The position numbers and the translations under genes were made by a program. The notes beneath the pieces were generated by a model that searched no databases, was not told the origin of the DNA, and was given only the letters and a program-made list of their open reading frames with translations. DNA of 64,000 nt from Bradyrhizobium diazoefficiens. GTDB taxonomy: Bacteria > Pseudomonadota > Alphaproteobacteria > Rhizobiales > Xanthobacteraceae. Location: assembly GCF_016612535.1 (NCBI RefSeq), contig NZ_JAENXS010000005.1, positions 1-64,000 of the forward strand. The letters are read 5' to 3'. Positions 8,005-30,103 of this stretch are shown in pieces; position 1 is the stretch's first letter; each line of letters starts with the position of its first letter.

Positions 8005-8262
8005 ATGCCGAAAAAGGGAATCACGGGCCACGACGACTGGGTTCTGACCGAGGCGCTGGCGACCGCGCTGGTCGCGCTGGAGCAGCTCGATACCAAGCAC
8101 CAGCCGAGCGCGCATATGGATGACATACGGAAAATGCTGGCGAACGGCAAGGAGCCGGCGGCGGTGAGCCTGCACCTGGCCCAGGCCAAGTGCCGCCTGT
8201 TCCCGGATACGGATCCGCTCGAGATCTACAAGGAATACGGGATTGGAGAGGAATATGGCTGA
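8005..8262 (+). CDS. small hypothetical protein
   Basis: 85 residues from the ATG at 8005 (MPKKGITGHDDW), preferred to an ATG nine codons upstream that has no Shine-Dalgarno. Mixed helical content, no membrane segment, no recognised family. It resembles short conserved rhizobial proteins in composition. The gene ends just before the left direct repeat that may mark the island border. Confidence 0.5.
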   Translation: MPKKGITGHDDWVLTEALATALVALEQLDTKHQPSAHMDDIRKMLANGKEPAAVSLHLAQAKCRLFPDTDPLEIYKEYGIGEEYG

Positions 8263-8305
8263 GGCGGCCCGCGCGGGGCCAGTTCTCGCCAGATCAGGAT
8301 TTATG

Positions 8306-8355
8306 AGGCTTGGTACGCTCGGGCGGCGGTCGCATTTTATGCGATTTCAATGGCT
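8306..8355 (+). repeat. left direct repeat, possible island border
   Basis: This stretch (TTGGTACGCTCGG ... GGCGGTCGCATTT ... GCGATTTCAATG) matches 32264-32317 in the same orientation, with only a few mismatches and three gapped bases over about 50 positions. The two copies are about 24 kb apart and enclose the cyclase/TIR and cytochrome clusters. It could be an attachment-site remnant. An alternative is a shared coding fragment, because the gaps keep the frame (RSHxxRFQ in both). Confidence 0.55.
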
Positions 8356-8704
8356 TGTCGAGACAGGCAAGCCTTCAGGTGCGCTTCGTGCCCTCGAAGT
8401 GCCTTTTCAAGGCTGCGATCTGCTGGCTAATTTCTGATCGGCCAAACAGAGCCGCGTAAACACGGCAGCTGATGCTGCGAGCCAATGCCCCCGACGCCGG
8501 GCGCGCGTCCGGCGCGCACAGCGAAAAGGCTGGAAAGCGCGTACACAACGTCACAATTATCGCATCCGGTCCCAAAAAGCCTACCCGTATATTGGATCGC
8601 GTAGCTAAGCTGTCAGCAGGCGCCGAAGCCCGGGCCTCGCACGCATTGTCTGACAACGGCCAAGCGGTTCGCGTGCGGCGACTTGCGAGGAAACTGGGAG
8701 CAAC
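8356..8704. other. 349-base stretch without a supported gene
   Basis: Only a 64-codon ORF starting upstream at 8243 reaches in (to 8437), and it has no recognisable family. The rest is the leader of the cyclase gene. No clear promoter boxes or hairpin terminator were recognised by eye. Confidence 0.4.
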
Positions 8705-10591
8705 ATGCTGGGAATCTCGGGTGTGGACCTCCGACAGCTGTTCACCATCTTCGAGCAGCGCGACGCAATCGACCTTGCAAGCAGGCTGGATGAGTGTGCG
8801 TTGATTGCACAACGGGCGCTAGTGCTAGGTGAGCCGCTGCTGTCCTACGATTTCTGTACGTTCGGGCTTGGCAAAGCCGCCGATCACTTGAGATTGCAAC
8901 AGGTACAGTGCCTGGCTTTGGCACGTTCCGGTGCATACGAACAGGCGCAGCAGCTTCTCGAGCGACTGTACTCGCACGGACACCGGGATGAGGAAACACT
9001 CGGTATTCTGGCGCGCACGTACAAGGATATCTGGCTGGAGAAGCGCCCTGTTACTCCGGAACACCCCAGTTTAAAGCGCTCGCAAGAGCTCTACGAAGAG
9101 TCCTATTTGGCAAACGGCGGCCATTGGCCGGGAATCAACGCCGCGACGCTGGCGATGTATCTCGGTCAAGTGGAGAAATCGAAGCAGCTTGCAGCCAAGG
9201 TTCGCGACGAGTGCCTAGTCGCCAGGACGGCCTCCTCCGGTGAGGATCACTGGTTGGCCGCCACGATAGGCGAAGCATCCTTGTTGTCCGGAGATCTTGA
9301 GGTAGCTCGCTCTTGGTTTCAGGAGGCACTTGCTCAGGCGGAGCTAGGCGACCGCGCTTCAATGCGACGAAATGCGCGCCTTGCTCTGGAGGCCCAGGGG
9401 CTAGCGCTCAAGGTCCTCGGCAGCCTGTTCGCGCCAGTGACCGTCGCGGTCTTCACGGGACACCGAATTGACGGGGAGGAGCAGGCGCCGCCCCGCTTTC
9501 CCGCATGGCGGGAGAAAGACGTCGCGGGCGCAATCAGGGCGTATATCGAGAACTCTGATGCGCAGGTTGGATTTGCCTCAGCGGCCTCTGGGGGGGACAT
9601 CCTCTTTCATGAAGCGATGTTGGGTTCGGGACGCGAGACACACGTCGTGCTGCCGGCCCCGCCCGATGAATTTGAGGCTCGGTCTCTGGCGGCGGACAGT
9701 GCCGAATGGTCGGCACGCTTTCACTCAGTTCTAAAAAGCGCCCAGAGTGTGATCGTACACTCAGGCTCGGTATCGGGGGACATCGGCTACGCGTTCAACA
9801 ACTGGGTTCTTCTAGGACTTGCCCGTTCACGGGCTCGGCAAATCGAAGGAAACATCCTCGCTTTCGCTATTTGGGATGGGCGGCCGGGCTTGCCGGGAGG
9901 AACTTCCGATGCCGTTCGCGACTGGCAGCGATTTGGTCAGCCGGTCGAGTGGATCGCCCCGCTTCAGGCAGGCCGCTCGAACTGGAATGCAGTTCAGATT
10001 GAAACGACGGGCTCCAAATCCGGCCGTACGATCGGATCGCAGCGCGTCGTCTCGATGTTGTTTGCCGACGCGGTCGGATTCAGTAAATTGTCCGACGACC
10101 AAATTCCGCTTTTCGCCGAGCACTTTCTTGGAATGGTGGCCAACATTATCGAGGGCCAAAAGGAGTTGCCCCTGACCCGCAACACGTGGGGCGACGGTCT
10201 TTACCTTTGTTTTGCGACACCAGCCGGCGCCGGGCGCTTTGCGCTGGACTTGGCCGAAGCCGTACGAGAAACGGAGTGGACCAAATTCGGACTGCCTTTA
10301 ACGCTTTCGCTGCGAATCGCCCTCCACTGCGGTCCGGTCCATGAAGTGACCGATCCTGTCCTCAAACAACGGGAATTCAAGGGTGCCCATGTGAGCCGCG
10401 CTGCACGCATCGAGCCGATCACACCATCGGGAAGCGTTTATTGCAGCCAGCCGTTTGCCGCATTGTGTGAATGCGAGAATGTAAGCGAATTCGTCTGCGA
10501 CTATGTTGGCCGGATACCGCTTGCAAAACAATTTGGCGAATTTCCAATGTTTGCGGTGCGGCGCCGGCAGGCAGCCAAGCTGCCCATTTAA
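8705..10591 (+). CDS. TPR / SLOG-like Rossmann / class III nucleotide cyclase fusion
   Basis: 628 residues in three parts. Residues 1-235 are helical repeats of the TPR/'TRAFs-binding' type. About 245-415 is a Rossmann-like domain (VAVFTGHR start, then ASGGDILFHEAML), resembling SLOG/LOG nucleotide-binding folds. About 447-605 is a class III adenylate/guanylate-type cyclase: both metal Asp residues are present (LFADAVGFSKLS and TWGDGLY) and the late Arg is kept (AAR). The usual substrate Lys four residues before the second Asp is Asn, the base-reading Asp seems to be Glu (REFKG), and the ribose-binding Asn is Ser (HVSRAAR). Substrate may therefore differ from ATP/GTP; uridylate/cytidylate cyclases of Pycsar are also class III. 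GGGAGC precedes the ATG. No signal peptide, so cytoplasmic. TIR and STAND genes follow. Confidence 0.82.
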   Translation: MLGISGVDLRQLFTIFEQRDAIDLASRLDECALIAQRALVLGEPLLSYDFCTFGLGKAADHLRLQQVQCLALARSGAYEQAQQLLERLYSHGHRDEETLGILARTYKDIWLEKRPVTPEHPSLKRSQELYEESYLANGGHWPGINAATLAMYLGQVEKSKQLAAKVRDECLVARTASSGEDHWLAATIGEASLLSGDLEVARSWFQEALAQAELGDRASMRRNARLALEAQGLALKVLGSLFAPVTVAVFTGHRIDGEEQAPPRFPAWREKDVAGAIRAYIENSDAQVGFASAASGGDILFHEAMLGSGRETHVVLPAPPDEFEARSLAADSAEWSARFHSVLKSAQSVIVHSGSVSGDIGYAFNNWVLLGLARSRARQIEGNILAFAIWDGRPGLPGGTSDAVRDWQRFGQPVEWIAPLQAGRSNWNAVQIETTGSKSGRTIGSQRVVSMLFADAVGFSKLSDDQIPLFAEHFLGMVANIIEGQKELPLTRNTWGDGLYLCFATPAGAGRFALDLAEAVRETEWTKFGLPLTLSLRIALHCGPVHEVTDPVLKQREFKGAHVSRAARIEPITPSGSVYCSQPFAALCECENVSEFVCDYVGRIPLAKQFGEFPMFAVRRRQAAKLPI

Positions 10592-10746
10592 GGGGGCACG
10601 TCCCGCCCGGCGGCCGCCGACAGTCCTGAGGTTCAAAGTACGGCCACCAAGCTTTGCATTAAGGGCACCGGCCGGCCTGAGTCCGCGTGGTTCAGTCAAG
10701 GCTTGCAGAACAGGAGGCGCTGTACCCGCGCGGCGCGCATCTTCCC

Positions 10747-10776
10747 TTGACGGAATTGTAATTTTCTTTCTAGACT
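10747..10776 (+). promoter_or_regulatory. candidate sigma-70 promoter for the TIR-STAND pair
   Basis: TTGACG (10747-10752), an 18-base AT-rich spacer and TAGACT (10771-10776) lie about 40 bases before the TIR start codon. This local AT-rich patch stands out from the GC-rich surroundings. It would let the TIR and STAND genes be expressed separately from the cyclase. Confidence 0.5.
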
Positions 10777-10817
10777 ATCGAAGATTTTATCCTTCGTTCT
10801 CTGTTTCAATTATTGCG

Positions 10818-12356
10818 ATGCTGCCGATGATTAATGGGGCTGTGACAGCATTCTTGTCCTATGCAATCAAGGACAACCGATCAGCTCCCGGCGATACCGC
10901 TGGAAAGGGCGGCTTCGTGAAGGCGCTCGTCGATTCCGTCGAGTATCATTTCGACTCCGACCCCACGGGACCACTACTTTGGTGTGATTTCGATCATATC
11001 GACAACACCGAGCAATTCGAAGCGCCAATTGTAGACGCCATTGGTCGATCGTCCTATTTTGTCATCGTTTTGTCTCACCACTGGATCGACAGTCCCTATT
11101 GCCGGAAAGAGCTCGATCTCTTTCGGGAACGATGGAAGCACGAGAGCGATTTCGATTTCGGACATCGTATCATACTTGTGCACAAGGCTTGGGTTCCGCC
11201 CGAACGACGTCCGGATATCCTTCCCGAAGTGCGCGGGTTACGCTTCTATTCGAGTTCACGCGACGGCGTTGAAATTCCGCATTTCACGCGTGGCGAAGGC
11301 AATCGAGAGTTTCACGACGCCGCCGCGGAGCTTGCCCATGTCCTCAAGCGGAGGGCCAAGCATCGACCGGGCCAAGTCGATACCGCCACACGAACTCTGC
11401 AGAACTTGTCAGCTGCGCCGAAGGTCCCGCCAAAGTCCGGCCTCAAGGTGTACCTAGCGAAGCCGGCAGCCGACATGCGCGCGGGGTATCGGCGCCTGTA
11501 CAACGACCTGACCAGCCATGGTTGCCATGTCGCTCCCGACCTGGATGCCGAAATTCCAGTTGATGCATCGGCCGTCGCCTTCATTGACGACGCATTGCGG
11601 GATGCGGTCATTACCGTTCATCCAATCGGCCAGAAGCCCGGTTATGCGCCCGACGAGCTTGACCCGATTGTCAAGCTGCAGCTGAGCCGGGCAGCCAACA
11701 GAGCTGCCGAAAACGTGGACGGATCATTTCGGAGATTTGCGTGGATACCGAGGTTTCTCGAAGACGCGACGGGAACGGCCAGCGAGCGTGATCCGATCGA
11801 GACCTTCAAAGCATTTGGCCGGCAACTTGCGAGCGACCGGATCGACGGCAGCAGTGTCAGCATCTTCTCCGAATGGGTACTGCAGTTTCTCGACTCGCTC
11901 GCCCAACCGCAGGCCGAGCCTCTCGTCGATGGCGAGGTTTATCTCTATCACCACGAGCTCGATACCGACTATGCGATCCAGCTCGCCGACCTGCTCAGAG
12001 AAAACGACATCAGTTATGTGATGCCGGCTCTCCTGGCACCCGACACCGAGCGCGAGCAGCACCACAAGACCGTTCTTGCCAAATGCAGCACGATCATCAT
12101 GTGCTGGGCCAACGCGTCTGAATGTTGGGCGAGAGCAAATGCGCATGAGTTCGCGGATTGGCGAAAGCTGCGCCGTGCGGCTCAATTCTCGTCTCGAACG
12201 TTGATTGCCGGTCCACCCCCACATCTCCGTAAGGAGGATCGCCTGCTCCGACACATCTTTTCGAACAAGGAGATCGACTTACTCGTCAATTGGACCGGTG
12301 TCGAGATTCCGACGAACGAAGAGATGCGTAAAATCATCACGCCCGCTCGACGATGA
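10818..12356 (+). CDS. TIR-domain protein with two further Rossmann-like domains
   Basis: 512 residues from the ATG at 10818 (an ATG at 10827 is equally possible). The frame stays open to 10503, but that part has no domain and lies upstream of the candidate promoter. Residues about 8-130 form a TIR domain: AFLSYAIKD, a WCDFDHI segment, and SPYCRKEL, whose Glu matches the catalytic Glu of NAD-cleaving TIRs. About 210-320 is a second domain (KVYLAKPAADMR ... HPIGQKPGY), of the type often paired with TIRs. About 370-505 is a third (VYLYHHELDTDYA ... WANASECW ... DWRKL), resembling a TIR-like effector-associated module. The stop overlaps the next start as ATGA, implying translational coupling. 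It likely responds to a nucleotide signal or to the STAND protein, but this is inference. Confidence 0.8.
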   Translation: MLPMINGAVTAFLSYAIKDNRSAPGDTAGKGGFVKALVDSVEYHFDSDPTGPLLWCDFDHIDNTEQFEAPIVDAIGRSSYFVIVLSHHWIDSPYCRKELDLFRERWKHESDFDFGHRIILVHKAWVPPERRPDILPEVRGLRFYSSSRDGVEIPHFTRGEGNREFHDAAAELAHVLKRRAKHRPGQVDTATRTLQNLSAAPKVPPKSGLKVYLAKPAADMRAGYRRLYNDLTSHGCHVAPDLDAEIPVDASAVAFIDDALRDAVITVHPIGQKPGYAPDELDPIVKLQLSRAANRAAENVDGSFRRFAWIPRFLEDATGTASERDPIETFKAFGRQLASDRIDGSSVSIFSEWVLQFLDSLAQPQAEPLVDGEVYLYHHELDTDYAIQLADLLRENDISYVMPALLAPDTEREQHHKTVLAKCSTIIMCWANASECWARANAHEFADWRKLRRAAQFSSRTLIAGPPPHLRKEDRLLRHIFSNKEIDLLVNWTGVEIPTNEEMRKIITPARR

Positions 12357-15226
12357 TTCAGGCGATTGGAGAGGCAAACCTGTGTGAGACGACCGCGGGA
12401 CCCCCCTTCCCCGGACTCCGTCCATTTTCGTATCGTGACCATAAATATTTCTTCGGACGCGATGAGCAGATCTTCGAACTCTACCGCTTGTTGACGCGCC
12501 ATCATTTCATAGCCGTCGTTGGCAGTTCCGGCAGCGGAAAATCATCTATCATTCGGGCTGGCCTCCTGCCGGTCCTCGATCGCGAGAGCGAAGAGCGTCG
12601 GCACCGGGTGTGGCATTGGACGACGATGAGGCCCGGTCTCAACCCGATCAATCGCCTTGCCGGCGCGCTCGCGACCGCGGTCCAGCCGGCGGGCGACAGG
12701 TTCTTATCCGCCCGTCGGGACAGAATTGCTTCAATCCTGCGGTCGTCGCGTGCCGGCATCATGGAGTCTCTTTCCGATGTCGGCGTCGAACAAGGTGCGG
12801 AGTTGGTCATCCTCGTCGATCAATTCGAGGAGTTGTTCCGGTTTCTGACTCCCGCGCAAGCGGTGGCAGACCGCGCCGAAGTTGCCAAACGCCGCGAAGA
12901 GTCGACACACTTCGTGCAGTTGCTGCTTGACGCCACGCGATCTCACGACAGCCCTGTCCGCGTCGTCTTAACGATGCGTTCGGATTTCATCGGCGACTGC
13001 GCGCGCTTTCAAGGGCTCCCCGAAGCGGTTAGTGCTGCGCAGTTCCTTGTGCCGTCGCTAACGCGCGACCAGCGTGAGGAAGCAATCCGCAAGCCCCTGG
13101 AACTCTCGAACACGTCAATAGAGCCGACGCTCGTCGAACGTCTCCTCAACGACAGTAGCGACGAGCTCGACCAGCTGCCGCTGTTGCAGCATTGTCTGGC
13201 GAGACTGTGGACCTGCGCAAGTCGGAGCATGCATCCGGAACCGGCTGAACCTCCGACATCCGGCCCGCCGCGAGGCCCGCATATCACCGAGCAAACTTAC
13301 CGCGATGTCGGCGGGACCATGGGGGCCATCTCGGGCCATGCCAACGAGATTTTCGCCTCGCTACAGGGGGCAGAGACAACCATCGAGCGCATCTTCCAGG
13401 CGCTCGCTGAAATCGACAAAGACGGCAGGATCATCCGGCGCGCACGCAGCCTCAATCAACTGCTCGCCGAAGCGGGCCAACCCGCCGCGGAGATGTATGC
13501 GGTCCTCGACAAGTTTCGTGCGGACGAGTGTTCGTTTGTCGTTCCGCCGTTGTCCTCTTTGGAAACGACTGAACAGCTGCCGACCGATACGATCATCGAC
13601 ATTGGGCATGAAGCACTGCTCCGCTGCTGGGAACGAGTATGCGGCGAGCCCGGAGCGACCGGAGAGCGGTCTGATAAACGTGACGTTGGATGGCTTCGGC
13701 GCGAGCAGAAGGACGGCAACCACTACTTGTTCCTGCGATCCTGCCTCGACCCCGACAGTCCTAACGAGTCCGGTCTCTCGACCGACCAGACCCGGCGATC
13801 CTGGACGTGGTGGCAAAGGCGCAAGCCTAGCGAGGCCTGGGCGGCACGCTATGGCGGCGCTTTCGCTGAGGTCGAGAACCTCGTCAGGCGATCATTCCTC
13901 GCATCCCGCAGGTCAGGTCTGAAGCGCCGGGCCGCATATGCCGCGGTGGCGCTGGTCCTGCCGGCAATTATCATCCTCTCCGCAATTACGATCCAAAATG
14001 CACACGAGACGGCAAGTATTTTCCGCGTCACTGCCAAGTCCGCCAAACTCATTTCGCACAACATTCTCGAACAGTTCAACAATGGACGATTAGGTTTGGT
14101 GGGTGCCGAGATCCTCCACCAATCAGCCGACGATCTCTACCAAAGCGTCCAACATATCAAAGAGACAACCGAAACGGCAGCGTTGCGTACTGAATGGCTT
14201 CTTGCCGAAGCCGATATTGCCGATGCCTTCAACAAGCCGGATCAAGTCCGTAACTATGTTGAACAGGCGCTCAAGAATGCGAAGCGCCTCGCCGCGCTCG
14301 ACCCGAATAACAGGGACTGGCAAGAACTTCTCTACGAGTCCCTTTTTCGAAATGGCGATCTGGAGCTGACCAAATTTTTGAATCTGGGCAAAAACGAATC
14401 TGTAGCCGACCGTGCTGCAGAGAGCGCAATGGACCACTATCTTCGGAGCCACTCCGCGGCTGAAAAGATTGCCTCGCTCGACATCCCGCCGCCCGGTCAC
14501 TTCGAAGTCGCAGACGTCATGCGATCTGAGGACGACACCTTCCGCCTTGTTTTCTCGACCAACAAGATCGGCGAAGCACTTCTGGCGAAAGGAGATTTTT
14601 CCGGGGCTCTTGCGAAGTTTCAGGAGGCGCTGGAGAAAGCGGCAGATCTCGAATCCAGCGCAAAGATGGATCGGCGGCTTCAGTCCGCGTTCACCCGGTT
14701 CAAGATAGCCTCCGTCCTGATTTCAGCGCAACCGCCGAACTATTCTGCTGCCATTCTCCGATATAACGAGGCCATTGGCATCGAAGAACGAGCACTTTCG
14801 GCCGCCCCGAAGAACCACATCGTCCGATCGAATCTAGCAGCCGCCTTGACCGCACGTGCCCACGCTTCATCCAAGATGGCTTCGCCAGGCCGAGCTGCCG
14901 TCGATGCGGCAGAAGCAGACTTTACCCAAGCGGAAGAATTGCGCAGGAGCCTCGCCGATGAAAATCCCGACAACCCGCAATGGCTCGAGCGTCTCGCACA
15001 ACTCCGGAAGCTGTATGGTGAGCATTTGGCGCAAGCGGCGCATGTCGATGGTTCGCTGGTCGACCAAGCGATCGGCCAGGTCGGCCGCGAGATGGAAGTG
15101 CTCGATCGACTTAGAGAGATCGAACCGGCGGCGAGCGATTGGCGTAACAACCTGACGTCATGCAGGAAGCGGCTAAATGACCTTCAAGCCCTCGCCGCGG
15201 CATCCGGATCCACCAATCGGCATTGA
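12353..15226 (+). CDS. STAND NTPase (nSTAND1-type) with membrane helix and helical-repeat C-terminus
   Basis: 957 residues. The N-terminal motif PFPGLRPFSYRDHKYFFGRDEQ marks the nSTAND1 family. Walker A is VVGSSGSGKSS (about residues 54-64), Walker B is LVILVDQFEEL (about 150-160), and a sensor-like VVLTMRSDF follows. A hydrophobic helix at about 525-550 would anchor it in the inner membrane. The remaining 400 residues are alpha-helical TPR-like repeats (for example NKIGEALLAKGDFSGALAKFQEALE), probably the sensing part. STAND proteins are ATP-driven switches that oligomerise on ligand binding, and many act in phage defence. It starts inside the TIR stop codon. Confidence 0.85.
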   Translation: MIQAIGEANLCETTAGPPFPGLRPFSYRDHKYFFGRDEQIFELYRLLTRHHFIAVVGSSGSGKSSIIRAGLLPVLDRESEERRHRVWHWTTMRPGLNPINRLAGALATAVQPAGDRFLSARRDRIASILRSSRAGIMESLSDVGVEQGAELVILVDQFEELFRFLTPAQAVADRAEVAKRREESTHFVQLLLDATRSHDSPVRVVLTMRSDFIGDCARFQGLPEAVSAAQFLVPSLTRDQREEAIRKPLELSNTSIEPTLVERLLNDSSDELDQLPLLQHCLARLWTCASRSMHPEPAEPPTSGPPRGPHITEQTYRDVGGTMGAISGHANEIFASLQGAETTIERIFQALAEIDKDGRIIRRARSLNQLLAEAGQPAAEMYAVLDKFRADECSFVVPPLSSLETTEQLPTDTIIDIGHEALLRCWERVCGEPGATGERSDKRDVGWLRREQKDGNHYLFLRSCLDPDSPNESGLSTDQTRRSWTWWQRRKPSEAWAARYGGAFAEVENLVRRSFLASRRSGLKRRAAYAAVALVLPAIIILSAITIQNAHETASIFRVTAKSAKLISHNILEQFNNGRLGLVGAEILHQSADDLYQSVQHIKETTETAALRTEWLLAEADIADAFNKPDQVRNYVEQALKNAKRLAALDPNNRDWQELLYESLFRNGDLELTKFLNLGKNESVADRAAESAMDHYLRSHSAAEKIASLDIPPPGHFEVADVMRSEDDTFRLVFSTNKIGEALLAKGDFSGALAKFQEALEKAADLESSAKMDRRLQSAFTRFKIASVLISAQPPNYSAAILRYNEAIGIEERALSAAPKNHIVRSNLAAALTARAHASSKMASPGRAAVDAAEADFTQAEELRRSLADENPDNPQWLERLAQLRKLYGEHLAQAAHVDGSLVDQAIGQVGREMEVLDRLREIEPAASDWRNNLTSCRKRLNDLQALAAASGSTNRH

Positions 15227-15680: not shown

Positions 15681-16700
15681 TTACAAATATCTGGCGGCGA
15701 TGTCGATGGTCGAGCGAACGCCAACATGGCTGAAATTGGCCTGCAGCCAGTTCTCGGCGCAAACGCGGCCCACATCGCGCAAATGGATCAGGAATTCCCA
15801 ATCGACGTTGAACTTGCTGGCGGCGCCGAGCTCCTTCATGATTGATTCAGCCTCGATTGCGTGGATCAGCATGCTCTTGATCTCCTCGCCACGCAGCAGT
15901 CCGCTGCCAACGAGCCTGTTGGCGAAGGCAATCGCTCGCATCTCGCGCATCAGCGACGAATTGAAGCTGATCTCGTTCAGCCGATTCAAGATGTCGCTCG
16001 CAGTTCGCGGAATTTCCTCACGTGAAATCGGATTGATGTGGATGATGACGACATCTGTCGACTCGCAGCCATAAATGACCGGAAAAATTGCTGGATTGCC
16101 CATGTACCCGCCGTCCCAAAAGGCCTCGCCGTCGATCTCGATCGCCTGGAAGAGCAAGGGCAGGCAACTCGAAGCAAGAACGGCCAAAGCCGTGAGTTCA
16201 TGGTTCTCAAAGACCTTCACCTTCCCAGTGCGCACATTCGTCGCACAGAGGAACAGCTTGACGATGCTCTCGTTGCGCAGTCGTTCAAAATCCACGGTCT
16301 GCTCGAGAACGCCGCGCAGCGGGTTGTAATTCAGCGGATTGATCTGATACGGCGACAGCAGGCGCGTCATCATGTCGAAGAAGACAAAGGCCGGCGACGT
16401 TTCCAGCGAACGACCTTTCGTGAGGCGATCGAACAGAGTCGGCTGCAACGGTCCCCAAACACCGAGCTCACTGACGCGACGCCAATACTCCGCGAGCGCG
16501 CGCCTTGCGCCCTCGCGACCGCCTGTCGTCAGGCCGTACGCCATGACCACGGCATTCATCGCGCCGGCGCTGGTGGCGCAGATCCCCTCGAAGGATATCC
16601 GCTCGTCTTCGAGCAGACGATCCAGGACGCCCCAGGTGAAGGCGCCATGCGCTCCACCGCCTTGCAAGGCGAGGTTGACCGTCTTGTGTGCGGAGGTCAT
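15681..16700 (-). CDS. patatin-like phospholipase family protein
   Basis: 339 residues. The oxyanion-hole motif LALQGGGAHGAFTWGVLD sits at the N-terminus. ATSAGAMN supplies the nucleophile Ser (GxSxG with Ala for the first Gly), and the catalytic Asp is in the conserved DGGY motif (AFWDGGYMGNP). No signal peptide. Patatins hydrolyse acyl esters of phospholipids, and several act as membrane-degrading effectors in nucleotide-signalled defence (CapV in CBASS). It is transcribed convergently to the cyclase-TIR-STAND genes, so it is a neighbour rather than an operon member. Whether it belongs to that system is open. ATG at 16700. Confidence 0.85.
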   Translation of the reverse strand: MTSAHKTVNLALQGGGAHGAFTWGVLDRLLEDERISFEGICATSAGAMNAVVMAYGLTTGGREGARRALAEYWRRVSELGVWGPLQPTLFDRLTKGRSLETSPAFVFFDMMTRLLSPYQINPLNYNPLRGVLEQTVDFERLRNESIVKLFLCATNVRTGKVKVFENHELTALAVLASSCLPLLFQAIEIDGEAFWDGGYMGNPAIFPVIYGCESTDVVIIHINPISREEIPRTASDILNRLNEISFNSSLMREMRAIAFANRLVGSGLLRGEEIKSMLIHAIEAESIMKELGAASKFNVDWEFLIHLRDVGRVCAENWLQANFSHVGVRSTIDIAARYL

Positions 16701-17332: not shown

Positions 17333-20300
17333 CTATTCGATCCCATAGCGAGCGAACTCCTCGACGATGGACGGCTGGATCTTTTTCGCGGCATCGATGT
17401 CGACCTTGGCGCCGGCAGCTTTGCCGCTGCGCCGCTTAGCGATTCCACGACCATAAAGCGCGGACACACGCTTTGGATCGTGCAACAACGCCGAGGTGTA
17501 ATCGGCAATTGCCTTCTTGTAAGAGCCGAGTTTCAAATTAACCAGGCCGCGGCTGTCGAAAGCATCGGCAAAATTCGGCGCAATTCGCAGCGACGCGTCG
17601 CAGTCGGTGAGCGCCGCCTGGACCTCGTCGAGCATAGCCAGTGCCCAGCAACGGTCGTTGAGCGCGCCCGCATGGTTCGGATCGCGGCGGATCACCTCAT
17701 CAAAGTCCTGGATGGCGAGTTCAAACTCGCCCCCGAGCGCCCGCTGCAGCCCACGTCGGAAAAGACCGTCCGGATCAGCAGGCTGGGCGGGAGCAATGCT
17801 GTTCGACGGTGCGGGCGTCGGAGATGCAGAAACGCCCGGTGTGACCGCTGCCGATTTGACTGATGTGTCCGGCGACAAGGTGTCGGGTGCGGAAGGCCGG
17901 GCATTTTCAGGTGCTACCGGCTTGGGAATGTCGGGGGTGACAATCGCCGGCGTATCGGACGCCGCGGGGTTGAGCTTGGCGATCTGTTGGACCGCCAGGT
18001 CGTGATACTGGCCCGCGGGATAATTGGTCACGAAGTTATCCCAGGCCTGTCTGGTCCCAACCTCTTCCGCGCTCGCGTAGTCGCGGCGCGCGGCGGCATC
18101 CGGATCTGGCGCCGGCGCCGGCAGGGCAGTGTCTGCGGCCGGGACCGCCGGTTCGCCAAGCGCTGTCGGAATGACGGGCGCCGGAGCGATCGAGCTGACG
18201 TCGGGGACGTGATAACCGTGGCAGAGCGTGCAGCTTTCCCAGGCGGTCTGCTGGCTGTGGCATTCGGCGCAGACTGCCTTGTCCAGGTGCTTGAAATTCG
18301 ACGTGTAGTTGACCGGATCGCCTCCTTCGTAGGTCTTCAGAAATTCGCTCTCATTAGGCTGCAATTCGTGGCACCTGACGCAGGTCTTGGAGCCGATCAG
18401 CTCGACGTGCGGCTTGTGAGAGTAATTCGTGAAGCGGTTATTGATCGTATTCGGGTCAAACGGCTGCCAGTTTACAATCTTGGCTTTGCCATGGTCGTCT
18501 ATGCTGTGGCACTTGGTGCAGCGGCCGACCGCATCCTTCGGCGCCAACTCATCAAAGATCGGCGTCATCTGATCGTGAAGGCCGCTGCCATAGGCCCGGC
18601 CCGCAAAGTCGAGCCAGTTCTGCAGGAACTGATCGGCATGGCCGGTCGGGCGATAACGGATCGTGAAATCCTCACGATACCAGCCGCCAGTCTGTGCCCA
18701 GGTCTCGGGATCGAACGGGATGGGCATGGCATCGGTCGGTTTCTTGGCTCCGGCACCTGCGTTCGCATCGCCTCCGCTAGGCGTCGAACTGTCATCGCCA
18801 GTTGCTGACAAGGTGTTGTCGGCGGCGGCCTTGTCTCCCGACAGAATGTCGTCCTTGTTGCCTGGGGCAAGAGCGTCATCCTTGTTGGCTGGCGCGAGGA
18901 TGTCGGCGTTTTTTGTCAAGGTGGACGTGTCGTCCTTGCCTGTGGCGAGGATGTCGGCCTTGCTGTCACCGGCGTTTCCTCCGGGAGTGAGGATATCGTC
19001 GGAAGATCCGGCACCGGGCGCTACAGTCGCAGCGACGGCCTTCCCGTCGCCGCGAGGCGAGGAAGGCGGCGGAATCGCCGCGTCATTGGCTGGCTTTTCC
19101 GGCGGCTTGAAATTGCCGGTTGGCTCGCCGCGGGCATGCCGCTGCAGATCGTCCTGCAAATCGGGGAACCATTCCTGATTACCTGCCATGACAACGTCAT
19201 GCGACATGCCACCGGTCAGCGCAGCCATTTGGAGGCTGTCGACTTGCCTGCCGGATTTGTTGCCGGCCAGAGCCCTCATCGCCGCTGGATTCGCGGTCTC
19301 CAGGCGGCCGAACAGGCGCTTCACCGCCCATGCCAGCGCCCCAACCCGCGCGAGGTCCTGATCGCTGGCCTTGCTCAGATCAAGCAGATTCAGTTCCGCC
19401 ACAGCGGATACGACGTTCTCGCCGTTGGCGTCCAAGAGCAGCCGCATGAAAGGGGTCAGAGCTGCTTCAGAGTCTTTGGGCCAGTTGCCGATGTCGACGC
19501 CGTGTTCCCTCAGCGTCGCAACATCCAGTCCGGGGACCGCGATGACGTCGATGCCCTTGGGCCCGCTGACCCGCGTGGCTCCGTTGATGTCACCGTTGTG
19601 ACAGCCGGCGCACATGGTTTCGAACGGCTTCACCACCATGTATCTCTTCCGGACACCCGGCTGATGGCAGTCGGTGCAAACATCGGGCACAATCTGCCCC
19701 GCGACCGCAGCTTTCACGGCTTCCGGAAAGTGCTTGGTCATATGCGATCGGTGATCGAAGATGATGCGCGGTCGCCGTTGATACGGATATTTCGCAAACT
19801 GCGGATGCGAATTGGCAAACGATCCGATCTTCGACACATGGCAGGTCTGGCAGCGCTGATTCGAGACCTTCTTCAGGTCCGTAAACACGCCTTGATGCTC
19901 CTCGTGGCAGGTCCCGCACTGAATCTCCGTGTCGGCCCCGCGTGGAGTTGCGGGAAAGACGGCGCGCTGTATCAAGCTCTCGGGCGGCGCGTCTTTCGAC
20001 TTGCTCCGAAGCGTTTCGGTGAGCCGCTTCAGGTCATCGACCGGATGCGTATGCGGTCTGAACGGTTCAGCTCCCATGACGTGGCAGGTCACGCATAAAT
20101 TGGAGTTCTGCCGCGGCTCGACCGCGGTGACCAAACGATGCAGCAGATCGACCCGGCCGGACCGGGCGCCGGCATGGCAGGTCGAGCAATCGGTCAAGCC
20201 TGCATGGTGTGAGGAAAGCTTGCCCGGCATCATGAAATGGCGCCCGGCTTCGCCTCCCATGACCAAAACCAGAAGTCCGATCGTCAGCGCCATTGCGGCG

Positions 20301-20602
20301 AACGTAGCGCGCCTGCGTTTCGTCCGCAGGCTCGGGCGCGGGACGCAGCGCTCTAGCGTCATGCAGCACTGTCCATCCGGCAGCGGCCCCGCCTGGCAGG
20401 GCCCCCCGGCATTGGCGGATCGCCGGCATTGCCAGCGATCGTTCTCCAATCGGGGCTGGCAGGCGGTGGTCACGCAACACCGACCGTCGGCTCCCGGGCC
20501 CAGATCGCACGGCTTGCCGTCCGCCAAGCGCCCGCAAACCCACGCATCCTGCGGACGCTCGTACTTGCTCTCCTTGAAGCCGAATTTCTGGAGGACGATC
20601 AT
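17333..20602 (-). CDS. decaheme c-type cytochrome with Cys-rich cytoplasmic head and TPR tail
   Basis: 1089 residues. Residues about 20-90 hold two Cys-rich repeats, each C-x8/9-C-x9-CC-x4/5-C (in WVCGRLADGKPC..GP..DGRCC style). A single membrane helix (about 101-118) follows. After it come ten CxxCH heme sites: CSTCH, CVTCH, CGTCH, CQTCH, CTDCH, CAGCH in the first half, then CTKCH, CVRCH, CAECH, CTLCH. Between the two heme groups is a low-complexity linker with repeated DDILTPG-like units, and the C-terminus (about 960-1085) is TPR. It should be anchored in the inner membrane with hemes in the periplasm, taking electrons from the adjacent b-type protein. The start is six bases after the previous stop, so it is the distal gene of that operon. 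Confidence 0.88.
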   Translation of the reverse strand: MIVLQKFGFKESKYERPQDAWVCGRLADGKPCDLGPGADGRCCVTTACQPRLENDRWQCRRSANAGGPCQAGPLPDGQCCMTLERCVPRPSLRTKRRRATFAAMALTIGLLVLVMGGEAGRHFMMPGKLSSHHAGLTDCSTCHAGARSGRVDLLHRLVTAVEPRQNSNLCVTCHVMGAEPFRPHTHPVDDLKRLTETLRSKSKDAPPESLIQRAVFPATPRGADTEIQCGTCHEEHQGVFTDLKKVSNQRCQTCHVSKIGSFANSHPQFAKYPYQRRPRIIFDHRSHMTKHFPEAVKAAVAGQIVPDVCTDCHQPGVRKRYMVVKPFETMCAGCHNGDINGATRVSGPKGIDVIAVPGLDVATLREHGVDIGNWPKDSEAALTPFMRLLLDANGENVVSAVAELNLLDLSKASDQDLARVGALAWAVKRLFGRLETANPAAMRALAGNKSGRQVDSLQMAALTGGMSHDVVMAGNQEWFPDLQDDLQRHARGEPTGNFKPPEKPANDAAIPPPSSPRGDGKAVAATVAPGAGSSDDILTPGGNAGDSKADILATGKDDTSTLTKNADILAPANKDDALAPGNKDDILSGDKAAADNTLSATGDDSSTPSGGDANAGAGAKKPTDAMPIPFDPETWAQTGGWYREDFTIRYRPTGHADQFLQNWLDFAGRAYGSGLHDQMTPIFDELAPKDAVGRCTKCHSIDDHGKAKIVNWQPFDPNTINNRFTNYSHKPHVELIGSKTCVRCHELQPNESEFLKTYEGGDPVNYTSNFKHLDKAVCAECHSQQTAWESCTLCHGYHVPDVSSIAPAPVIPTALGEPAVPAADTALPAPAPDPDAAARRDYASAEEVGTRQAWDNFVTNYPAGQYHDLAVQQIAKLNPAASDTPAIVTPDIPKPVAPENARPSAPDTLSPDTSVKSAAVTPGVSASPTPAPSNSIAPAQPADPDGLFRRGLQRALGGEFELAIQDFDEVIRRDPNHAGALNDRCWALAMLDEVQAALTDCDASLRIAPNFADAFDSRGLVNLKLGSYKKAIADYTSALLHDPKRVSALYGRGIAKRRSGKAAGAKVDIDAAKKIQPSIVEEFARYGIE

Positions 20603-20608
20603 GCCGAC

Positions 20609-21439
20609 CTAACTCGCCGCAAAGGCGTATTCCAACGCCACATGGACTGCGATCGCAACCAGCAGCGCGTAGGTCGCAGGGACATGCACGAAAAGCCAAA
20701 TGCGCAGCAGCCCGCCATTGCTGTAATGAAAATCGAGATTGCTCTTGGCCTCGATGAGATCGCGCATCTTCTGCAGGCGAGCCTTGCCGGGTTCGTCGAG
20801 ATATCGCTCAATGGCGGACAGTTGCCCGACAAGCCGCGCCTGCGGCACCTTCGATGCCACCAAATGCGCGAGAATGTTACGAGGCCCCGCAAAGAAGTCG
20901 CTCAGGGTGTCGATATAGAGCCTGGCAATGCTCCGGGTGTTGCCGTCCTGGACCGACTCCCGCGCGATCGCCTCGGCCTGTTCCGCCAACTGGGCCCTGA
21001 ACAGCGGGATGCGATCGAACAGGATCCGCTCCCCCTGCGCCTCGAGGCGCGGCGGCAGGATCTTGCTCATAATTGCGCCTGCCAGCCCACTCAGGGTGAC
21101 AAACATCAACAGGCCCCAAAGCAGCCAATGCAACAGAGACCCGGGCAGCTCAAATCTGGTGTGGACGACGAAGACCGCGATCGTCAGGAAGCCGACGTAA
21201 TAGTGCACGAGCAGCCAGAACCTGACACGACCGAAGGGAAGGATGACGACCTTCTTGCGCCAACCCAGCAACATCATCACGGTGATGCAGGCAAACAAAC
21301 TCCACCCGCTGAAGAACTGGACTTTATGCAAGGCAATATCACGCCGGGCATTCTCGAAAAAGAACAGCGCGAACGCGACACTCGCGACCGCCAGATTGAT
21401 CGCAGTGTTCCTGCTCAACAATGAGGTCAACCGAGCCAC
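20609..21439 (-). CDS. diheme b-type membrane electron-transfer protein
   Basis: 276 residues with membrane helices at about 11-30, 42-58, 72-92, 98-118 and 250-270. Paired His residues in helix 3 (VHYYVGFLTIAVFVVH) and in the last helix (FVHVPATYALLVAIAVH) are spaced about 13 apart and fit b-heme ligation across the bilayer, as in NapH/ferric-reductase-like or cytochrome b561-like proteins. A cytoplasmic helical loop (about 120-245) is unusual. The GTG start overlaps the end of the Fe-S protein gene by 13 bases and the stop is followed at once by the decaheme gene, which argues for one operon moving electrons from Fe-S clusters to periplasmic hemes. Confidence 0.75.
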   Translation of the reverse strand: MARLTSLLSRNTAINLAVASVAFALFFFENARRDIALHKVQFFSGWSLFACITVMMLLGWRKKVVILPFGRVRFWLLVHYYVGFLTIAVFVVHTRFELPGSLLHWLLWGLLMFVTLSGLAGAIMSKILPPRLEAQGERILFDRIPLFRAQLAEQAEAIARESVQDGNTRSIARLYIDTLSDFFAGPRNILAHLVASKVPQARLVGQLSAIERYLDEPGKARLQKMRDLIEAKSNLDFHYSNGGLLRIWLFVHVPATYALLVAIAVHVALEYAFAAS

Positions 21440-23130
21440 GCCAGCAACTTTCTGGAATCGCGAATGTCAACACGGATCAGGGCATCGTGGGGACAGGCCT
21501 GGGCGCAGGCCGGTCCCGTCAATTGATCGGCGCAAAGGTCGCACTTGGTGGCGCGACTGATCGTCAGGCCTTCGCTGTCGAGCAGGAAAGCGCCCGACTT
21601 GTCGCGGATGTCCACCATCTGAATGTTGTCGTAAGGGCACGCATTGGCGCAGGTAGCACAGCCGACACAGGTGCCGTCATTGATCACGACGGTCCCGGTC
21701 CCCTCTTCGCGGTGGATGGCGCCTGTTGGACAACCTATCAGGCAGACCGGATCGGTGCAGTGCATGCAGGCATTGGCAACCATGAGGTTGTGATGCGAGA
21801 AGCCGTGCCGCCTGAAGCGCGGATTGTTGTCGTGTGCCGTGGCGCAAGCCTTCACGCAATCGTCGCAGCCGACGCAGCGATCGAGGTTGATCGCCATCGC
21901 TTTCTCGCCGTTGATAAAGCGATGATCGACGAGAAAATCCATCATCTCCTGCTGCATCTTCAGCGCAACAGGCTCCCGTCTCGACACGGCCTTCTTATTG
22001 TTGCGAGGACGGGCAGGAAGGCCCGGAAGCACGTATTTGCACACCAGTTTGGTCGGAATCCGAATGATGTCGACATAGCCGATGGCGCGCAGACTTGCCT
22101 TTAACACCACGCCGGCGTCTCCGGCTGCGATGGACGCGATCTCGTCCAGGCCGAAAACATCGTTGACGGACAGATGATCAATCGCCTGCTCGCCGTAGTC
22201 GACGTGCTCGGTCACTCTGGCAAAGCCCCGGCTAATCAATAGCAAGCCGTCAACATGGGCCCCCTGCTCGCTTATCACGGTTTCCTGTTCGATCACGCGG
22301 CTGACGTCGCTCTGCCTCTCTTTCTTGAAGCGATGCGTCCAATCGGTGTTGCCGTAGGTTTCAAACAGCGATTCCCTTGCAATCTCGTCCAGCGCTTGTG
22401 CGTCCAAATGACGAAGAATCGGGCTTTCCCGCAGTCGGCCGACCAGACCGCGCTCGCGATAGAGCTGATCTATGCGCTGACGGAACGCCGTGGACCAGGT
22501 GCGGATGTCGCGAACACCCTGCCATCGCAGCTCGAACAAAAGCGTGTCGTTCTCGGCCGCCACGACAGTGGCCGTGCGCTGCCTTCCAGTCAGCGCGGCC
22601 AGCTCGCCAAAAACCTCGGTCGCTCGGAGAGCGACCGCCGAAAACCGCTGCTTGGAATCATCGATTTCGATCTTTCCCAGTCCGCTAGGCACAGCCGATT
22701 CGGACGCCACCGGCCTGCGCCCGCGCTGCCGCCGCCGTGTCGGCCTAAACTCGGGAGGCTTGGCACGCGCAAGCAGCTGCGCGATCGATCGCCACCAGCT
22801 CACCCCACGCTTTGGCGTCCGGGCGGCGCCCGTCTCGGACTCAATCGAAGGGAGCGTGAGGACGCCACCTTCCAGGACGATAAACAGCGAATTGCCGTAA
22901 TCGCCTTTGCGGATGATCACCTCCCCGCGCTGGAATTTTCGCAAGCGCCCGTCATTCGCGATGATCTTATCGAGCGGTAGCCATGCCTGGAACTCGGCCG
23001 GGTCGACATTCGCGAAGCTTGGCAGCGAGAGAATGCGGGCTACGGTTTTGCCGTCGAGCGGTTCGTCGCCGAACGGTTCATCCCATCGGCGATTACGTTC
23101 TTCGACGAGCTCCGAGACCGGCTCAGCCAT
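21427..23130 (-). CDS. cyclic-nucleotide-binding, four-[4Fe-4S] ferredoxin protein
   Basis: 567 residues. The first CNB domain (about 50-205) is split by a basic insert of about 65 residues. Its phosphate-binding cassette FGELAALTGRQRTATV keeps the Glu and Arg that bind the cyclic phosphate. A second CNB-like domain (about 235-370) has lost the Arg (FGLDEIASIAAGDAG). The C-terminus (about 412-555) has sixteen Cys in four ferredoxin motifs (CVGCDDCVKAC, CMHCTDPVCLIGC, CVGCATCANAC, CDLCADQ..CAQAC), as in DmsB/HybA-type electron-transfer subunits. No signal peptide, so cytoplasmic. This pairs electron transfer with cAMP/cGMP-type sensing. The next gene overlaps it. Confidence 0.88.
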   Translation of the reverse strand: MAEPVSELVEERNRRWDEPFGDEPLDGKTVARILSLPSFANVDPAEFQAWLPLDKIIANDGRLRKFQRGEVIIRKGDYGNSLFIVLEGGVLTLPSIESETGAARTPKRGVSWWRSIAQLLARAKPPEFRPTRRRQRGRRPVASESAVPSGLGKIEIDDSKQRFSAVALRATEVFGELAALTGRQRTATVVAAENDTLLFELRWQGVRDIRTWSTAFRQRIDQLYRERGLVGRLRESPILRHLDAQALDEIARESLFETYGNTDWTHRFKKERQSDVSRVIEQETVISEQGAHVDGLLLISRGFARVTEHVDYGEQAIDHLSVNDVFGLDEIASIAAGDAGVVLKASLRAIGYVDIIRIPTKLVCKYVLPGLPARPRNNKKAVSRREPVALKMQQEMMDFLVDHRFINGEKAMAINLDRCVGCDDCVKACATAHDNNPRFRRHGFSHHNLMVANACMHCTDPVCLIGCPTGAIHREEGTGTVVINDGTCVGCATCANACPYDNIQMVDIRDKSGAFLLDSEGLTISRATKCDLCADQLTGPACAQACPHDALIRVDIRDSRKLLAWLG

Positions 23131-29397: not shown

Positions 29398-30103
29398 AAT
29401 CAAACTACCAATCGCTATCGGGCTTCACGCAAAAATTGTGCAACGAATTCGATGAAGCCCCTGAATAAGGAAAAAGGATACCCTTAACAAATGACAGTCC
29501 GCAAACAAAATTCTTGGCCCTCCCGGGCAAACCGCGCGCACTGGAGCAGGTTTAAGAACATAATCGATGCCGGAAGCTTGGTCTGACGGACTCATCCTTC
29601 GATCGTGCGTAGATTCTCCACGAGTTGTGCCTGCCCGGCAACAGTCGATCTTCGACCGGATGGTTCGAAGAGCAACGCGTGCACATTCCCTATGCATCTG
29701 ACCATTTCGAGCGCGGTCGAACTTCAGCACAAAGACACCCAGCGGCTGCAGCCCGTCGCGGAACCCTACCCGCCGTGCGATCTCGAGGCCCGCGTCGACT
29801 TTCTCAACGAACACTAAGGTCACCAGCACCGCCGTCCCGCTGAAGCGAGAGCCGATCCGATGCGCCGCAATCCCAAAACGCCGCCCCAAGCGCTGCTTGC
29901 GGCACCAAGGGAAAGCGGCTTAACTCAGACCAACCGATTGGTCGGAGCTTCCACAGGCGGCGCCGCAAGATGTTGCAATCCATTTGAGGTCGGACAGCCG
30001 GCGACGCGTTGTGTGTCGAACCCGTACTTGTGATGCCGCAACCGGCCCTTGCGTATCACATCGGGCAGCCGTGGTCCGGCGGCGCTTGTTGGTCTGAAAG
30101 AGC
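29398..30103. other. 706-base region between cytochrome and ccmI-like genes
   Basis: It divides the divergent cytochrome (minus) and ccmI-like (plus) genes and so should hold their promoters. ORFs of 60-150 codons on both strands lack domains, Shine-Dalgarno sites and codon bias, so none is called. A short open stretch at 29605-29817 (ending VDFLNEH) is the most protein-like but could not be supported. Confidence 0.4.

What the first reader, a model, noticed from the sequence alone, without database searches (positions are those of the whole stretch)
8705..15226. Cyclase-SLOG / TIR / STAND three-gene cluster: candidate nucleotide-signalled defence system
The sequence shows a TPR-Rossmann-class III cyclase, then a TIR protein and a STAND NTPase joined by an ATGA overlap. 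Class III cyclases with TIR or membrane effectors define the Pycsar phage-defence type, and STAND NTPases act in Avs-type defence. Here cyclase, TIR and STAND occur together, with no CD-NTase or E1/JAB partner. The three-way combination could be a new layout: cyclase produces a signal, a TIR cleaves NAD, and the STAND gates the response. Function is inferred from domains and order only.
Basis: partly seen in the sequence, partly recalled or inferred. Interest (0 to 1): 0.85.

Follow-up and report, generated by a model that had tools for sequence, protein, structure and literature searches.

The report
Membrane STAND-TIR pair with SLOG cyclase
Three neighbouring genes in a bacterium look like a modular alarm system: a probably membrane-spanning sensor and an NAD-cutting TIR protein that travel together, plus an optional partner that may turn the TIR signal into a cyclic nucleotide.

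Summary
The window encodes a TPR-S/ASK1-like + YpsA/SLOG-like + class III cyclase protein (8705-10591), a TIR protein (about 10818-12356) and an nSTAND1-TPR NTPase (12353-15226) joined by ATGA. The constant unit is TIR + nSTAND1, adjacent in 24 of 27 loci read (two misses are cut by contig ends). The cyclase is optional: found in 1 of 265 genus genomes, the TIR in 10 of 265. Their link is not chance: of 297 genomes of an Acidobacteria relative's phylum, 9 have the TIR, 8 the cyclase, 4 both (0.24 expected), each time on the same contig. In 35 of 80 loci of its own family the cyclase lies within 400 bp of some TIR gene. TIR-nSTAND1's partner varies: SLOG-cyclase, SLOG-DUF4231 or SLOG alone. SLOG is the shared part, so I favour a Thoeris-like order: TIR product to SLOG to output. 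The STAND has a conserved hydrophobic segment before fast-diverging TPRs; charge bias puts the TPRs outside the cytoplasm. The cyclase keeps metal Asp and catalytic Arg but has an unusual base pocket. No cNMP-binding effector is adjacent, so it is not Pycsar as defined. Every activity, and defence itself, is inferred.

The parts
8705..10591 (+). TPR-S / SLOG / class III cyclase protein, 628 aa
8705..9427 (+). TPR-S/TPR module (residues 1-241), fold of the ASK1 central regulatory region
9434..9982 (+). SLOG-like Rossmannoid module (residues 244-426)
10031..10573 (+). class III nucleotide cyclase domain (residues 443-623); metal Asp codons at 10067-10069 (D455) and 10193-10195 (D497)
10818..12356 (+). 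three-module TIR protein, 512 aa from the homologue-supported start (10827 is the next ATG)
10839..11366 (+). TIR domain (residues 8-183); invariant Glu98 codon at 11109-11111
11436..11903 (+). second Rossmannoid module (residues 207-362), DNPH1 / CMP N-glycosidase / TIR-like
11925..12353 (+). third Rossmannoid module (residues 370-512), receiver-like fold
12353..15226 (+). nSTAND1 NTPase - hydrophobic segment - TPR protein, 957 aa; start overlaps the TIR stop (ATGA)
12404..13639 (+). nSTAND1 NTPase domain (residues 18-429), Walker A at residue 57, Walker B around residue 154
   Evidence: PF20703 2.5e-82; Walker A GKS and the Walker B Asp in 30 of 30
13937..13993 (+). hydrophobic, probably membrane-spanning segment (residues 529-547)
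   Evidence: Kyte-Doolittle 19-residue mean 2.47; 29 of 30 proteins (own included) reach 1.6 at residues 517-532 onward; charge bias
14000..15223 (+). C-terminal TPR region, fast diverging, predicted outside the cytoplasm
   Evidence: 26-39% mean identity over residues 501-956 against 53-70% over residues 1-500; weak TPR hits

Best explanation
A patchily distributed, probably horizontally acquired, modular conflict system, most likely anti-phage and abortive. Core: an nSTAND1 NTPase with a membrane-spanning segment and a diverging TPR sensor part, and a cytosolic TIR protein probably made from the same message. On perceiving a trigger the STAND assembles and switches on the TIR, which cleaves NAD. 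Add-on: a TPR-S-SLOG-cyclase protein whose SLOG/TPR-S part binds the NAD-derived product and drives the fused cyclase, turning one messenger into a second (a cyclic nucleotide of unknown base) that reaches receivers encoded elsewhere. Shown: domains and folds, conservation of catalytic residues, gene linkage, variation of the partner gene, hydrophobic segment and charge bias. Inferred: every activity, the membrane topology, the trigger, the direction of the signal, and the role in defence.
For: TIR and nSTAND1 adjacent in 24 of 27 loci read. The SLOG part recurs where the output differs: SLOG-cyclase (window, L036, L018, L158, L162), SLOG-DUF4231 (L101, L108), SLOG alone (L102); SLOG homology of L101/L108 by hhalign, probability 93.2, E 3e-7. 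Some TIR lies within 400 bp of the cyclase in 35 of 80 cyclase-family loci. Co-occurrence in 297 genomes: 9 TIR, 8 cyclase, 4 both, P 2.6e-5; without the genome used to choose the group, 3 both, P 4.4e-4. Catalytic residues conserved. Patchy distribution of the TIR: 10 of 265 genus, 8 of 391 family, 2 of 385 class genomes, own included. Synteny with six relatives ends at 8260-8279 in 5 and at 8363 in one; G+C is 0.63-0.68 left of it and 0.55-0.62 across the three genes. Precedent for TIR product to SLOG: Thoeris, passage in PMC12948488.
Against: In the other nine genus genomes with the TIR no cyclase of this family was found at E 1e-30 (the four best first-look candidates of a genome were scored), so the relay is not needed for the core. 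In 19 of 27 TIR loci no SLOG partner was seen in the stretch read, some of them short. No cNMP receiver lies in the locus; the nearest cNMP-binding match is in an Fe-S protein at 21427-23130 on the other strand. The catalytic Asn of class III cyclases (recalled) is Ser in 117 of 120, so activity is not certain. No phage or defence gene was named among the 25 other window ORFs scanned with Pfam, and no relative was confirmed in viral contigs. In half of the close TIR-cyclase neighbours the two genes are on opposite strands (17 of 35). The 226-bp gap and a promoter-like site at 10747-10776 (2 sites found in the region, 0.8 expected) leave open that cyclase and TIR-STAND are separate transcripts. 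G+C stays at 0.59-0.63 to the right of the system, so the low value does not mark these genes alone.
Confidence: 0.45

Rival explanations
1. Reverse order, Pycsar-like: the TPR-S-SLOG-cyclase senses first and its cyclic nucleotide activates the TIR protein through its second or third Rossmannoid module, with the STAND as scaffold.
For: The cyclase is the first gene; most cyclase relatives with a close TIR gene show no STAND in the stretch held (TIR in 38 of 80 loci, STAND in 7 of 80), as a signal-maker with its effector would; the TIR carries two extra nucleotide-fold modules. PycTIR in Pycsar is activated by a cyclic nucleotide (PMC11224242 passages).
Against: TIR-nSTAND1 pairs occur in genomes where no cyclase of this family was found. 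No cNMP-binding domain is in the TIR protein by Pfam. The shared part of the varying partner genes is SLOG, not the cyclase.
Confidence: 0.2
2. TIR-nSTAND1 is a complete two-gene system and the cyclase beside it in this window is a neighbour with its own role.
Against: Same gene order in L036; cyclase within about 2 kb of the TIR in L018, L158 and L162; co-occurrence well above chance.
Confidence: 0.2
3. A stress- or redox-signalling pathway rather than defence, as in the ASK1 kinase that shares the TPR module.
For: ASK1-like fold; 26 class III cyclase matches in this genome; a redox cluster with an Fe-S, cNMP-binding protein follows within 10 kb.
Against: Patchy presence within one genus, a diverging sensor part, TIR catalytic residue kept, end of conserved synteny beside it.
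Confidence: 0.15

Closest known systems
Thoeris (ThsB TIR + ThsA SIR2-SLOG)
   Same: TIR protein with a SLOG protein beside it; in type I Thoeris the TIR product binds SLOG and fires the fused output (PMC12948488 passage)
   Different: output here is a class III cyclase (or a DUF4231 part in relatives), not SIR2; an nSTAND1 NTPase is added; TIR has two extra modules
Pycsar (PycC + PycTIR/PycTM)
   Same: class III cyclase and a TIR protein in one locus
   Different: no cNMP-binding effector adjacent; base-pocket residues N493/W495 match none of the PycC residue sets read in PMC11224242 (passages); cyclase fused to TPR-S and SLOG
Avs / TIR-NLR type STAND defence (features recalled; TIR with NACHT proteins in a PMC10952713 passage)
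   Same: STAND NTPase with C-terminal repeats and a TIR output
   Different: TIR is a separate gene, the NTPase is nSTAND1, and a conserved hydrophobic segment separates NTPase from repeats
TPR-S systems of Burroughs and Aravind 2020 (J Bacteriol 202:e00365-20; paper not held; content recalled)
   Same: TPR-S scaffold predicted to read NAD-derived signals, tied to the ASK signalosome
   Different: whether they describe cyclase + TIR + nSTAND1 with a varying SLOG partner could not be checked
SLATT membrane effectors (described as a predicted nucleotide-responsive pore-forming 2TM domain in PMC7159879, passage)
   Same: relatives L101 and L108 pair TIR-nSTAND1 with SLOG-DUF4231; that DUF4231 is SLATT-like is recalled, not tested
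   Different: the window has the cyclase form

Membership tests
Pycsar | cyclase beside an effector with a cNMP-binding domain | tested here: not met
   No PF00027 in the three proteins at E 0.1; nearest match 22051-22941 on the - strand in an Fe-S protein, 6 kb or more away
Pycsar | PycC base-pocket residues | tested here: not met
   N493 in 119 and W495 in 120 of 120 relatives; EaPycC F100/R142/Q144, AnPycC F60/K104/F109, BcPycC Y50/D94/R97 (passages). Positions matched by offset from the second metal Asp, not by structure
Pycsar | PADLOC profile match of the cyclase | tested here: inconclusive
   No PADLOC model at E 0.1 or better; which Pycsar models the library holds was not checked
Thoeris | TIR protein plus a SLOG-bearing partner | tested here: met
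Thoeris | SIR2 output fused to SLOG | tested here: not met
   The fused domain is a class III cyclase
Thoeris | TIR product binds SLOG | not testable with these tools
   needs protein and ligand
Avs / TIR-NLR | effector fused to the N-terminus of the STAND protein | tested here: not met
   nSTAND1 begins at residue 18; TIR is a separate gene
TPR-S systems | TPR-S domain | tested here: met
   PF20308 70.1 bits against a cut-off of 27.6
Active class III cyclase | two metal Asp, transition-state Arg and Asn (roles recalled) | tested here: inconclusive
   Asp, Asp, Arg 120 of 120; Asn replaced by Ser in 117 of 120
NADase TIR | catalytic Glu (position recalled) | tested here: met
   E98 invariant in 25 rows; Glu column E in 40 of 41 TIRs of cyclase loci, one gap. 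Activity not tested

The most novel reading that the evidence does not exclude
A bacterial Toll-like receptor relay: a single-pass membrane STAND with an extracytoplasmic, fast-changing repeat domain fires a cytosolic TIR, whose NAD-derived messenger is read by SLOG/TPR-S and converted by the fused cyclase into a second, non-standard cyclic nucleotide. Two messengers in series, with the output module (cyclase or membrane part) exchanged behind a constant SLOG receiver.
Probability: 0.2. Interest if true: 0.85.

Novelty: new variant of a known kind. Interest (0 to 1): 0.6.

Why it matters
It would show one second messenger being converted into another in a bacterial immune circuit, and a STAND receptor that may sense from outside the cytoplasm. 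It also ties the ASK1-type TPR module to a TIR signal in bacteria, and gives a testable rule (SLOG as constant receiver, output varied) for annotating loci now called only TIR or cyclase.

Tried and rejected
Patatin 15681-16700 as a fourth gene: judged likely unrelated. Its best relative among 13 genomes searched lies in G778 about 1.8 Mb from the left flank, and the 33 kb around it share nothing else with the window by blastn; G778 is not among the genomes with the TIR. A gene that looks patatin-like by eye also stands near L102, not followed up. Phage carriage: pattern matches in viral contigs (24 and 105 stretches), none confirmed as a relative of cyclase or TIR. Plasmids: the TIR in 2 records, both Caballeronia; the cyclase in 26 records, none over 80% of the query. 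PADLOC was run on the three proteins only: no convincing match. VIA and Foldseek lists are filled by one domain, so families absent from them are not excluded. A residue comparison with own-genome cyclases failed: one search mixed strands (L002 and L009 there read K and N at the two positions), and only 2 of 12 loci aligned (K and Q at the first, H and N at the second), so the contrast with canonical cyclases rests on general knowledge. Literature: no held paper describing cyclase + TIR + nSTAND was seen in searches, whose listings were mostly capped; besides the listings with the starts of abstracts, passages of six papers were read, no paper in full. Burroughs and Aravind 2020 and the 2015 paper are not held.

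Counting notes. Of 147 nearest neighbours within 1500 bp, 135 were scanned (only the 25 commonest of 114 families are shown there) and 8; 4 were not scanned with Pfam (L035:6050-8512, L036:2948-3346, L062:7089-9977, L085:12213-15215). Genes are ORF heuristics, not a gene caller. Many loci are cut by contig ends, so the counts of partners are lower bounds. The cyclases of L036 (beside a run of unread bases) and L162 read as two ORFs each; they were searched as pieces and not joined. The 7100-bp three-gene contig (P0003, P0133, P0193) is inferred from equal contig lengths and was not read. One further TIR match, L147, was not read for neighbours. G940 was chosen because it held the cyclase, so the co-occurrence is also given without it. 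Genome searches score only a few first-look candidates (3 to 5 of each genome in the large ones), so absences are provisional.

Full report

Catalysis. In the 120 listed relatives of the cyclase (P0001 included) the metal Asp (D455, D497), the Arg (R568) and K608 are kept in 120 of 120; the position that is Lys in adenylyl and Glu in guanylyl cyclases (recalled) is Asn in 119 of 120, the residue two before the second Asp is Trp in 120 of 120, and the catalytic Asn is Ser in 117 of 120. In the 80 genome loci the same order gives 80, 80, 80, 79, 78, 78 and 76 of 80. This is a conserved, probably active but unusual pocket whose base cannot be read from sequence. The SLOG keeps two invariant Gly (17 of 17 rows) and shows no Glu at the place of the LOG catalytic motif (motif recalled), which fits a receiver better than an enzyme. 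The TIR Glu98 is invariant in 25 rows. Walker A GKS and the Walker B Asp of the STAND are kept in 30 of 30.

What travels together. The TIR was sought in 391 family, 385 class and 265 genus genomes: 8, 2 and 10 have it, own included (the samples overlap). The cyclase at E 1e-30 was found in 1 of 265 genus genomes, the window's own. Reading the stretches, nSTAND1 is adjacent to the TIR in 24 of 27 loci: the window, L101-L106, L108, L115-L120, L158, L160-L166, L036, L018; misses L107 and L159 (contig ends) and L167. A SLOG-bearing partner is in the same stretch in 8 of the 27: cyclase form in the window, L036 (same order), L018, L158 and L162; SLOG-DUF4231 in L101 and on a Caballeronia sp. SBC2 plasmid (L108); a lone SLOG in L102. 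L036 and L018 came from the cyclase scan, so they do not count as independent evidence of linkage. L108 also carries a divergent TPR-S cyclase a few kb away. The SLOG of the DUF4231 proteins aligns with that of the cyclases by profile comparison (probability 93.2, E 3e-7).

Chance. In 297 genomes of the phylum of L036's genome, 9 have the TIR and 8 the cyclase; 4 have both (0.24 expected, P 2.6e-5; without the genome that chose the phylum, 3 both, P 4.4e-4). In each of the four both genes lie on one contig: adjacent, 1.6 kb, 2.2 kb and 18 kb apart. Genomes of one phylum are related, so these P values are a guide only. In the 80 cyclase-family loci (the best 80 of 112 confirmed) a TIR gene is found in 38, within 400 bp in 35 (18 on the same strand, 17 opposite); 35 of all 41 TIR ORFs found there lie that close. 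TIR_2 is the commonest Pfam family among nearest neighbours (27 of 135; ThsB_TIR 11 of 135, overlap not known), and 4 of 8 further long neighbours have it. A STAND is seen in 7 of the 80. Twelve other cyclase loci of the own genome gave no TIR, but their flanks are only about 1.5 kb.

Phylogeny. In a TIR tree of 32 rows the cyclase-bearing TIRs fall in two separate places: the window and P0133 in an 11-row clade (100/100) that also holds L101 with SLOG-DUF4231, and L036 with L018 in a four-row group (100/98) with L105 and L106. So the partner gene differs behind related TIR-nSTAND1 pairs.

Membrane. Residues 529-547 of the STAND are strongly hydrophobic (mean 2.47); of 30 proteins, own included, 29 have a segment of 1.6 or more starting at residues 517-532. 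Of 117 listed proteins of at least 850 aa, 112 have such a segment somewhere (its place was not checked for all); net charge averages +4.5 before and +0.5 after it, higher before in 104 of 112, and a second such segment is present in 6. By the positive-inside rule (recalled) the NTPase is cytosolic and the TPR region outside. Hydropathy is not a trained predictor and a buried helix is not excluded. The part after the segment diverges faster: 26-39% against 53-70% mean identity per 100-residue block.

Setting. Synteny with six genus relatives stops at 8260-8363; G+C is 0.63-0.68 to the left, 0.55-0.62 across the genes and 0.59-0.63 to the right. The segment to the right holds a patatin, multihaem cytochrome and Fe-S proteins, a CoA-transferase, acyl-CoA dehydrogenases and an RND pump; no tRNA is in the window. 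It is not a recognised defence island. The genus is probably Bradyrhizobium, judged only from names of some homologues.

Mechanism and rivals. I favour STAND sensor, then TIR, then NAD-derived product, then SLOG/TPR-S, then cyclase, because SLOG is the constant part of the varying partners and because SLOG is the receiver of a TIR product in Thoeris (PMC12948488 passage). All steps are inferred. The reverse, Pycsar-like order, an incidental cyclase, and a stress role remain open. Papers were seen as listings or passages only; Burroughs and Aravind 2020 is recalled.

Noticed in passing
window 21427-23130 (-): A protein with 4Fe-4S ferredoxin-like and cNMP-binding (PF00027) matches in a multihaem cytochrome cluster, 6 kb from the system; could in principle receive a cyclic nucleotide.
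   Followed up: partly
window 17333-20602 (-) and 27178-29403 (-): Multihaem cytochrome-like proteins (CXXCH, cytochrome c554/MtrC-like) in a segment not found beside the left flank in six relatives.
   Followed up: no
window 15681-16700 (-): Patatin-like phospholipase with a sub-threshold match to the CBASS lipase model; judged unrelated.
   Followed up: partly
L102 6084-7265 (+): A gene that looks patatin-like by eye, divergent from a TIR-nSTAND1-SLOG locus.
   Followed up: no
L108 4644-6410 and 9776-17176: Caballeronia plasmid with both SLOG-DUF4231/TIR/STAND and a divergent TPR-S cyclase; in strain SBC1 the TIR region is annotated as two genes.
   Followed up: partly
L158 3043-7265 (-): RyR-TPR-S-SLOG-cyclase beside a second, different TIR gene, about 2 kb from a TIR-nSTAND1 pair.
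   Followed up: no
L013 4686-11782: TIR-positive gene (with what looks like a SIR2-type start by eye), STAND, cyclase in a row: another three-way layout with a different TIR.
   Followed up: no
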